This document shows positions 15,044 through 16,827 of a stretch of 64,000 nucleotides of DNA, in pieces. Source of the DNA: Conexibacter arvalis (lineage in GTDB: Bacteria; Actinomycetota; Thermoleophilia; Solirubrobacterales; Solirubrobacteraceae); the NCBI RefSeq assembly GCF_014199525.1, contig NZ_JACHNU010000004.1:371969-435968 (forward strand). Direction: 5' to 3'. Position 1 is the first letter of the stretch. Each line of letters starts with the position of its first letter. The notes below the pieces were generated by a model. The model made no database searches and was not told the origin of the DNA. It worked only from the letters and a program-made list of their open reading frames with translations. Position numbers and translations under genes: made by a program.

Positions 15044-16633
15044 CTACGGCGTGGTGACGCGGGAGGCGGCCTCGGCGGTCGCCTCCTCGGCCTCGGCGGC
15101 GACGGAGCGCCGGCGGACCGCGTTGGAGAGCGCGCGCACGTAGGCGCGGCCGGCCGCCTCGATCACGTCGGTCGAGACGCCCTGGCCGGAGCCGGAGACG
15201 CCGTCGACCTCGAGCACGACCGACGTCTCGCCGAGCGCGTCCTGGCCGCTGGTGACCGCGTCGATGCGGAAGTCGCGCAGCTTCGCGTCGACCGACGTCG
15301 CCGCGTTGATCGCGTGGAAGACCGCGTCGATCGGGCCGTCGCCGGTGAACGAGCCGGTCGCCTCGGCGCCGTCGGGCAGTCTCACGCCGACGGTCGCGTG
15401 CGGCGGCCGTCTCGACGACGCCTCGACCTCGAACCACTCGAGCGAGTACGCGGGGATCTCCTCGCGCAGCTCGTCGGTCACGAGCGCCTCCAGGTCCATC
15501 GCGGTGACCTGCTTCTTCTTGTCCGCGATCTCCTTGAAGCGCTTGAAGGCGGTGTTCAGCGCCTGGCCGTCGACGACGATCCCGAGCTGCGCCAGCGCGT
15601 CTCTCAGCGCGTGGCGGCCGGAGTGCTTGCCGAGCACGAGCGAGTTGGAGTCGAGGCCGATCGACTGCGCGTCCATGATCTCGAAGGTCTCGCGGTGCTT
15701 CAGCACGCCGTCCTGGTGGATGCCGGACTCGTGCGCGAAGGCGTTGCGGCCGATGATCGCCTTGTTCGGCTGCACCGCGTAGCCGGTCAGGCGCGAGACG
15801 AGGCGGCTCGTGCGCGCGATCTCGGTCGTGACGGCGCGCGTGTCGAGGCCGACGTCGGCCTTGCGCGTGCGCAACAGCATCACGATCTCCTCCAGCGACG
15901 CGTTGCCGGCGCGCTCGCCGAGGCCGTTGACGGCGCACTCGACCTGGCGGGCGCCGGCCAGCACGCCCGCGAAGGAGTTGGCGACCGCGAGGCCGAGGTC
16001 GTCGTGGCAGTGGACCGACAGGACGACGTCTCTGAGGCTCGGCGTCAGCTCGTACAGCCGCTCCAGGAAGGCCGTGTACTCGTGCGGCATCGTGTAGCCG
16101 ACGGTGTCCGGGATGTTGATCGTCGTCGCGCCCTCCTCGATCGCGATCCGCAGCACCTCGGCGGTGAACTCGACGTCGGAGCGGGTCGCGTCCATCGGCG
16201 AGAACTCGACGTCGTCGACGTACTGCTTGGCGTGCGCGACGCCGGCCCGCGTCAGCCCGAGCACGTCGGCGCGCGTCGCGCGCATCTGGTGCTCGATGTG
16301 GATGTCGGAGGTCGAGACGAAGGTGTGGATGCGCGGCCGCGGCGCGTCTCTCAGCGCGTTCCAGGCCGCGTCGATGTCACCCGGGTGGATGCGCGCGAGG
16401 CCGGCGATGACCGGGCCCTCGACCTGGCGGGCGATCGCCTGGACGGCCTCGAAGTCGCCCGGGGAGGCGATCGGGAAGCCGGCCTCGACGATGTCGACGC
16501 CGAGCCGGGCGAGCTGCTGCGCGATCTCCAGCTTCTCGCTGGTGTTGAGCGAGATCCCCGGCGACTGCTCGCCATCGCGCAGCGTCGTGTCGAAGATCAG
16601 TACTCGGTTGGGGTCCTGCTCTGCGGGAGTCAT
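15044..16633 (-). CDS. leuA: 2-isopropylmalate synthase
   Basis: LeuA condenses 2-oxoisovalerate with acetyl-CoA, the committed step of leucine synthesis. The protein has 529 residues. The catalytic TIM barrel shows FDTTLRDGEQSPGISLN, VEAGFPIASPGDFEAV, SVHCHDDLGLAVANSFAGV (metal-binding HxH-type site) and NAFAHESGIHQDGVLK. The C-terminal third is the allosteric leucine-feedback domain (PDGAEATGSFTGDGPIDAVF, then DALGETSVVLEVDG). The ATG at 16633 has an AAGGAAG ribosome site. The gene stands alone, 73 nt downstream of a leucine-rich leader peptide, so transcriptional or translational attenuation by leucyl-tRNA supply is likely in addition to enzyme feedback. Confidence 0.97.
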   Translation of the reverse strand: MTPAEQDPNRVLIFDTTLRDGEQSPGISLNTSEKLEIAQQLARLGVDIVEAGFPIASPGDFEAVQAIARQVEGPVIAGLARIHPGDIDAAWNALRDAPRPRIHTFVSTSDIHIEHQMRATRADVLGLTRAGVAHAKQYVDDVEFSPMDATRSDVEFTAEVLRIAIEEGATTINIPDTVGYTMPHEYTAFLERLYELTPSLRDVVLSVHCHDDLGLAVANSFAGVLAGARQVECAVNGLGERAGNASLEEIVMLLRTRKADVGLDTRAVTTEIARTSRLVSRLTGYAVQPNKAIIGRNAFAHESGIHQDGVLKHRETFEIMDAQSIGLDSNSLVLGKHSGRHALRDALAQLGIVVDGQALNTAFKRFKEIADKKKQVTAMDLEALVTDELREEIPAYSLEWFEVEASSRRPPHATVGVRLPDGAEATGSFTGDGPIDAVFHAINAATSVDAKLRDFRIDAVTSGQDALGETSVVLEVDGVSGSGQGVSTDVIEAAGRAYVRALSNAVRRRSVAAEAEEATAEAASRVTTP

Positions 16634-16777
16634 GTCGTGCTCTTCCTTGTCGGCTCGGTGCTTCGATCTCTTCTCGCTGGGTTTGCGGCTACGCGGCCGC
16701 CACGCACTATTCCCCCCGAGGGGGGAGGAGAAGAAGTCGAAGGGCGAGCTGGCGCGACATGAACGCAGAGCAGCTTA
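16634..16777 (-). promoter_or_regulatory. leuA promoter and attenuator region
   Basis: It contains TAAGCT (16772-16777), the leader peptide, and a 7-bp C/G stem at its end. The segment 16728-16734 (within the Leu codons) can pair over 7 bp with 16669-16675 close to the leuA ribosome site. This pairing suggests alternative structures, but I cannot fold the RNA here. Confidence 0.55.
16707..16760 (-). CDS. Leucine-rich leader peptide of leuA
   Basis: ATG at 16760 encodes MSRQLALRLLLLPPRGE and stops with TAG at 16707-16709. Six of 17 residues are Leu, four of them consecutive, read by CTT and CTC codons rather than the CTG/CTC that dominate neighbouring genes. A TAAGCT hexamer lies 11 nt before the ATG, implying a transcript that starts almost at the peptide. 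The last codons overlap a G/C hairpin (centre near 16717). This is the classic layout of a leucine attenuator: stalling at Leu codons would change folding before leuA. Confidence 0.8.
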   Translation of the reverse strand: MSRQLALRLLLLPPRGE

Positions 16778-16791
16778 CCAGCGTCGTCGAG

Positions 16792-16827
16792 CCGGTGCGG
16801 GCGCCGCCGATGGCGCGCCCGCACCGG
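16792..16827 (-). terminator. Hairpin terminator of serA
   Basis: A perfect 13-bp stem (CCGGTGCGGGCGC and its complement) with a 10-nt loop, starting 7 nt past the serA stop. It separates serA from the leuA promoter, which begins immediately afterwards. Confidence 0.75.

What the first reader, a model, noticed from the sequence alone, without database searches (positions are those of the whole stretch)
16634..16777. Leucine-codon leader peptide and probable attenuator before leuA
Seen: a 17-codon ORF (MSRQLALRLLLLPPRGE) ends 73 nt before leuA. It has six Leu codons, four in a row, including CTT codons that look rare here. A TANNNT hexamer lies 11 nt before its ATG, a C/G stem overlaps its end, and there is 7-bp complementarity between the Leu codons (16728-16734) and 16669-16675 near the leuA ribosome site. 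Known: leucine operons are often controlled by ribosome stalling at leader Leu codons. Inference: this lineage controls leuA that way, with a nearly leaderless leader peptide.
Basis: partly seen in the sequence, partly recalled or inferred. Interest (0 to 1): 0.75.

Follow-up and report, generated by a model that had tools for sequence, protein, structure and literature searches.

The report
Leucine-sensing RNA leader before leuA
Just before the first leucine-making gene of this soil bacterium lies a tiny leucine-rich peptide gene whose RNA can fold over the next gene's start; it is kept across nearly the whole bacterial order and probably lets the cell make the enzyme only when leucine runs short.

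Summary
On the minus strand, 73 nt before leuA (a Conexibacter-like member of the Solirubrobacterales), lies the 17-codon uORF MSRQLALRLLLLPPRGE. A TANNNT box sits 11 nt before its ATG. Half of its Leu codons are CTT, which makes up 1.5% of Leu codons in the window.

The uORF is not chance: 109 of 116 distinct relative sequences keep a Leu-rich, near-leaderless uORF. An RNA model built from them hits 194 of 232 Solirubrobacterales genomes. In the last four Leu codons, 117 changes are synonymous and 14 are not.

The RNA has a C/G hairpin over the uORF end, a pseudoknot just after the stop with compensatory changes, and two long-range helices with partner-specific complementarity (z about -11; controls null). 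One joins the Leu codons to the leuA leader, the other the uORF start to the leuA start. No terminator is seen. In three genomes the element precedes leuS or a different leuA type.

Most likely this is a leucine-responsive translational attenuator. It works like the actinobacterial LEU element and leaderless LeuL, but with a different RNA and an added start-to-start helix. No expression data exist. New variant of a known kind.

The parts
16772..16777 (-). -10 promoter element TAAGCT; predicted transcription start about 16764-16766
   Evidence: Read directly. In 109 of 109 relatives a TANNNT box lies 6-17 nt (91 of 109 at 8-11 nt) before the uORF start, with conserved flanks (GC or TG before TA..CT). 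The start was picked partly by having such a box.
16707..16760 (-). near-leaderless leader peptide gene, MSRQLALRLLLLPPRGE, no room for a Shine-Dalgarno site
   Evidence: conserved in 109 relatives, 14-20 aa with three exceptions (25, 25 and 45), 38.7% Leu on average; the four codons before the Pro codon: 117 synonymous vs 14 nonsynonymous departures
16661..16675 (-). anti-Leu strand of helix P1 (GAGAAGAGATCGAAG), pairs with 16728-16735 and 16737-16742
   Evidence: Minimum-energy fold; native pairing stronger than partner-swapped, z -10.9; control with leuA coding region z +2.7
16728..16742 (-). Leu-codon strand of helix P1 (CTTCGACTTCTTCTC)
16755..16762 (-). 5' strand of helix P0 (TCATGTCG, contains the uORF start codon)
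   Evidence: Pairs with 16630-16637 in the minimum-energy fold; register-specific over 109 relatives, z 8.5 at this register, other registers between -2.8 and +2.0; duplex-energy z -10.8
16630..16637 (-). 3' strand of helix P0 (CGACATGA, contains the leuA start codon)
16711..16726 (-). hairpin P2, TCCCCC-CTCG-GGGGGA, over the end of the uORF
   Evidence: 97.7% of cells paired in 43 distinct relatives, C-G to U-A change in 8 sequences
16685..16705 (-). H-type pseudoknot: GCG 16705-16703 with CGC 16695-16693, and GCGGC 16700-16696 with GCCGC 16689-16685, starting 1 nt after the uORF stop
   Evidence: All three pseudoknot pairs have changes on both sides; stem P3 pairs in 100% of cells, two of its pairs with double changes; covariation score of P2, P3 and pseudoknot together 0.213 vs 0.072 in shuffles, 0 of 500
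16644..16648 (-). leuA Shine-Dalgarno sequence AAGGA
   Evidence: Read directly
15044..16633 (-). leuA, 2-isopropylmalate synthase (529 aa, bacterial type)
   Evidence: TIGR00973 690.6 bits, cut-off 598.7; NF002086 742.3 bits, cut-off 532

Best explanation
A leucine-responsive translational attenuator. Transcription starts a few nucleotides before the uORF (inferred from the -10 box), so ribosomes load on it without a Shine-Dalgarno site while the RNA is still being made. With plentiful leucine they run through the Leu codons and leave at the stop. The leader then folds: hairpin P2 and the pseudoknot compact the middle, the Leu codons pair with the leuA leader (P1), and the uORF start pairs with the leuA start (P0), so leuA is closed. 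When charged leucyl-tRNA is short, ribosomes stall in the Leu codons, which are rich in the rare CTT codon. They keep these strands from pairing and leuA is translated. Shown here: conservation, the coding constraint on Leu, the helices and their covariation, and the absence of a terminator. Inferred: the transcription start, stalling, and the direction of regulation.
For: Conserved Leu-rich near-leaderless uORF, in 194 of 232 Solirubrobacterales genomes by RNA model, 103 of 112 good-quality ones and 52 of 54 genera. Leu kept over synonymous change, 117:14. Covarying hairpin and pseudoknot. P1 and P0 complementarity partner-specific (z about -11), controls null. P0 register-specific. Predicted cost of opening the leuA start, mean of 109: 8.9 kcal/mol free, 7.0 with a ribosome in the last four Leu codons, 9.9 with one at the stop; lower in the Leu codons than at the stop in 84%. 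No T-run longer than 4 nt and no terminator-like site. The same element stands before leuS in one genome and before the other leuA type in two, as expected of a leucine sensor rather than a part of one gene.
Against: No expression, ribosome-profiling or mutant data for any Thermoleophilia were found. In Streptomyces coelicolor, mutating the comparable leuA leader had some effect, but not one consistent with classical attenuation (as reported in PMC1262725). In the fold model of the window itself, stalling with the A site at the early Leu codons (5 and 7) opens leuA (10.0 to 3.6-4.8 kcal/mol), but stalling at the Leu tetrad (codons 9-12) does not (9.1-10.5). P0 can re-form behind the ribosome unless a second ribosome waits on the uORF start. 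The swap tests do not correct fully for shared ancestry.
Confidence: 0.74

Rival explanations
1. Transcription attenuation of the trp/his/ilv kind: the leader peptide decides between a terminator and an antiterminator upstream of leuA, possibly through Rho.
For: Leu-run leader peptides with terminators exist before ilvB and leuS in other Actinobacteria; P2 is a strong C/G hairpin next to the uORF stop.
Against: No terminator-like site. The longest T-run between P2 and leuA is 1-4 nt in 109 relatives. P2 is followed by AATAG, not U. Rho-dependent termination could not be tested.
Confidence: 0.12
2. The structure is bound by a protein (as proposed for LEU elements in 2005) or another ligand, and the Leu run matters as RNA, not as codons.
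For: A pseudoknot with strongly conserved sequence after the stop. The Streptomyces leader mutants.
Against: Leu codons depart synonymously 117 times and nonsynonymously 14 times, and a few uORFs use TTG or TTA. The start codon, reading frame and -10 spacing are kept, which an RNA-only element would not need.
Confidence: 0.1
3. The uORF acts only by translational coupling or re-initiation (ribosomes ending at the stop pass to leuA), without leucine sensing.
For: A short distance of 62-92 nt from stop to leuA start in most relatives.
Against: Does not explain the Leu run, and a pseudoknot directly after the stop would hinder scanning.
Confidence: 0.04

Closest known systems
LEU element of Actinobacteria (Seliverstov et al. 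2005, PMC1262725)
   Same: Leu-run uORF before leuA, pairing of the Leu run with the leuA leader, a pseudoknot between them, no terminator
   Different: Different helices and sequence: C5/G5 hairpin plus GCG-GCGGC-CGC-GCCGC pseudoknot here, CCGCGGCGAGG-type arms with LLLLSCRGEGL-like peptides in Actinomycetes. Model R1 gives no convincing match there. In the window the Leu run pairs upstream of the Shine-Dalgarno site. The start-to-start helix P0 is not seen in 32 Actinomycetes leaders (z -1.1). The downstream leuA belongs to a different family (TIGR00973 vs TIGR00970).
Leaderless LeuL1 leader peptide of Streptomyces lividans leuA, MRFGLLLLSCRGEGL (PMC8079986), and the Corynebacterium glutamicum leuA leader with four Leu codons (PMC4046766)
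   Same: Short peptide with a Leu run before leuA; the S. lividans one is transcribed without a leader and has no Rho-independent terminator
   Different: Different peptide, RNA fold and leuA type; those rest on mapped transcripts, this one does not
Translation attenuation by stalling in a leader peptide (erm/cat type; own knowledge)
   Same: A stalled ribosome frees the start of the next gene
   Different: The signal would be uncharged tRNA at Leu codons, not an antibiotic

Membership tests
LEU element (Seliverstov 2005) | upstream ORF with a run of Leu codons before leuA | tested here: met
LEU element (Seliverstov 2005) | base stem between the Leu run and the leuA Shine-Dalgarno box | tested here: not met
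   In the window the Leu run pairs with 16661-16675, upstream of the AAGGA at 16644-16648. In 34 of 109 relatives the partner lies over the Shine-Dalgarno region.
LEU element (Seliverstov 2005) | conserved pseudoknot between the two strands of the base stem | tested here: inconclusive
   A covarying pseudoknot is there, but the published figure could not be read and the helices differ from the Actinomycetes leaders fetched here
LEU element (Seliverstov 2005) | recognisable sequence/structure homology to Actinomycetes leaders | tested here: not met
   Model R1 on 12 leuA loci of Actinomycetes: best 15.5 bits (E 0.025), no convincing match at a leader
Leaderless leuA leader peptide (LeuL) | transcription start at or just before the uORF start codon | tested here: inconclusive
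   -10 box 8-11 nt before the start in 91 of 109; no mapped 5' ends
Classical transcription attenuator | terminator hairpin followed by a U-run | tested here: not met
T-box or any Rfam family | match to the covariance model | tested here: not met
   Only chance-level matches at E up to 10
Translation attenuator | stalling in the leader opens the next start | not testable with these tools
   Only a fold model, in the expected direction on average

The most novel reading that the evidence does not exclude
A distinct, portable leucine-sensing RNA class of Thermoleophilia. The leader peptide's own start codon pairs with the start codon of the gene it controls, so both starts open or close together and the decision is made while the RNA is being transcribed. 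The same module has come to stand before two kinds of leuA and before leuS.
Probability: 0.4. Interest if true: 0.65.

Novelty: new variant of a known kind. Interest (0 to 1): 0.52.

Why it matters
It extends leucine leader control to a deep, little-studied class of Actinomycetota, with an RNA that matches no family of Rfam 15. How the actinobacterial leuA leader works has been open since the Streptomyces mutants gave a paradoxical result. The strong coding constraint on Leu and the start-to-start helix give sharp predictions that can be tested. Its presence before leuS and a second leuA type suggests that an amino-acid sensor of this kind can be moved between genes. No paper in the held library names both Thermoleophilia and a leader peptide.

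Tried and rejected
Rfam search at E up to 10: only chance matches. Promoter/terminator scan with sigma-70 consensus: nothing; no clear -35 box is conserved. Transcription attenuator: disfavoured for lack of a U-run. Chance ORF: rejected by conservation. RNA-only element: made unlikely by the synonymous changes. Weak R1 matches elsewhere in the phylum (L161, L162, L164, L170, L174) are not before leuA, lie in coding or unrelated sequence, and were discarded. The idea that P0 replaces P1 as the strand that hides the Shine-Dalgarno site was tested and is only suggestive (Spearman 0.26, p 0.006 uncorrected for ancestry; two-group test p 0.07). P0 in Actinomycetes: tested, not seen.

Full report
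What was checked. The minus-strand sequence shows every item in the finding: the uORF at 16760-16707, TAAGCT 11 nt before its ATG, the C/G stem over its end, the 73-nt gap to leuA and the 7-bp complementarity. The gene is leuA of the bacterial type (TIGR00973); the frame upstream looks like serA by inspection. The nearest named relatives are Conexibacter strains. CTT is 1.5% of Leu codons in the window, and no other ORF of 8-40 codons there has four Leu in a row.

Conservation. I fetched leuA upstream regions from relatives. Of 116 distinct sequences, 109 gave a Leu-rich uORF that met every criterion. The peptides run 14-20 residues (three longer), with 4-9 Leu, most often 6 or 7. They mostly end either as LLLLPPRGE or LLLLPLRGE with the stop after the hairpin, or as LLLLPR with the stop inside the hairpin loop. 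All 109 have a TANNNT box upstream, 91 of them 8-11 nt before the start. This predicts a nearly leaderless message. I chose starts partly by that box, so the 100% figure is favoured, but the tight spacing is hard to explain by the choice.

Coding or RNA constraint. At the four codons before the Pro codon, departures from the commonest codon are synonymous 117 times and nonsynonymous 14 times, against about 1:2 for random single changes. Part of this could come from pairing with G, which tolerates T or C. But CTG and CTA also occur, and TTG/TTA are used in a few uORFs. So leucine itself, and hence translation, appears to be kept.

RNA structure. On 43 distinct sequences, hairpin P2, stem P3 and a three-pair pseudoknot helix form standard pairs in 97.5% of cells. 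The covariation score is 0.213 against 0.072 in shuffles, and no slid register comes near. GCG...CGC becomes CGC...GCG in several lineages. The pseudoknot starts directly after the stop codon in the window.

Long-range helices. The minimum-energy fold of the window leader joins the Leu codons to 16661-16675 (P1) and the uORF start to the leuA start (P0). Over 109 sequences, native pairs are more complementary than pairs swapped between species for both helices (z -10.9 and -10.8), while the same segments against leuA coding sequence give +2.7 and +1.5. P0 is specific to one register (z 8.5; the other eight lie between -2.8 and +2.0). Shared ancestry is not fully removed by swapping, but the controls share the same ancestry. 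P0 is not seen in 32 Actinomycetes leaders.

Distribution and portability. Covariance model R1 hits 194 of 232 Solirubrobacterales genomes at E up to 1e-5, 103 of 112 of good quality. Weaker matches lie directly before leuA in other orders of the class. In the window genome leuA is the only strong site, 75.2 bits; the next reaches 25.4 and lies inside a coding frame. In one genome (L210) the element precedes leuS (TIGR00396, 937.7 bits). In two (L200, L206) it precedes leuA of the other type (TIGR00970). One of these two genomes, G480, also carries a normal copy and is listed as 7% contaminated.

Mechanism. There is no terminator. A fold model with a ribosome placed codon by codon gives a mean cost of opening the leuA start of 8.9 kcal/mol when free, 7.0 with the ribosome in the last Leu codons and 9.9 at the stop. 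The sign is right but the effect is modest. In the window itself only early codons, including Leu 5 and 7, open it, unless a second ribosome waits at the uORF start. The first Leu of the final run is at codon 9 or 10 in 86 of 109, about one ribosome length from the start, so such a queue is possible; this is inference. I conclude translational attenuation by leucine shortage, probability about 0.74, with transcription attenuation and protein binding as rivals.

Known relatives. The LEU element (PMC1262725) has the same logic, and Streptomyces lividans has a leaderless Leu-run leader before leuA (PMC8079986); Corynebacterium has one with four Leu codons (PMC4046766). The Actinomycetes leaders I fetched carry a different RNA and peptide and are not recognised by R1. 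[quoted passage not shown] I therefore do not file this as a member of the LEU element. It works like one and is best called a new variant of leucine leader control.

Noticed in passing
L210 (G024), minus strand, and L152: The leucine leader (MTPLLALALLLLPPRGE, GTG start) stands before leuS, with a small ORF in between whose stop overlaps the leuS start; this genome has no strong leuA match to the window's protein.
   Followed up: partly
L200 (G493) and L206 (G480): The leader stands before leuA of the Actinomycetes type (TIGR00970), not the type found in the window, so gene and leader have been exchanged independently.
   Followed up: partly
L199 (G541:C50): Two near-identical leaders 1.1 kb apart; the first seems to lack its start region and no long leuA frame follows it, looking like a partial tandem duplication.
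   Followed up: no
L139 (Patulibacter americanus): No Leu-run leader found before leuA; apparent loss.
   Followed up: no
L052 (G029, 1.7 Mb genome): Degenerate leader MARSAHTIRSILILPLSGE with Ile in place of some Leu in a small genome.
   Followed up: no
window 16794-16825, minus strand: 11-bp G/C hairpin just after the upstream serA-like frame and before the leuA promoter, with no U-run; possible end of the upstream transcript.
   Followed up: no
L102, L128, L114: Public records labelled Bifidobacterium breve or Chlamydiae bacterium carry Solirubrobacterales-type leuA and leader, so they look mislabelled.
   Followed up: no
L222, L223: Type-2 leuA matches in two related Actinomycetes genomes contain one in-frame TGA.
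   Followed up: no
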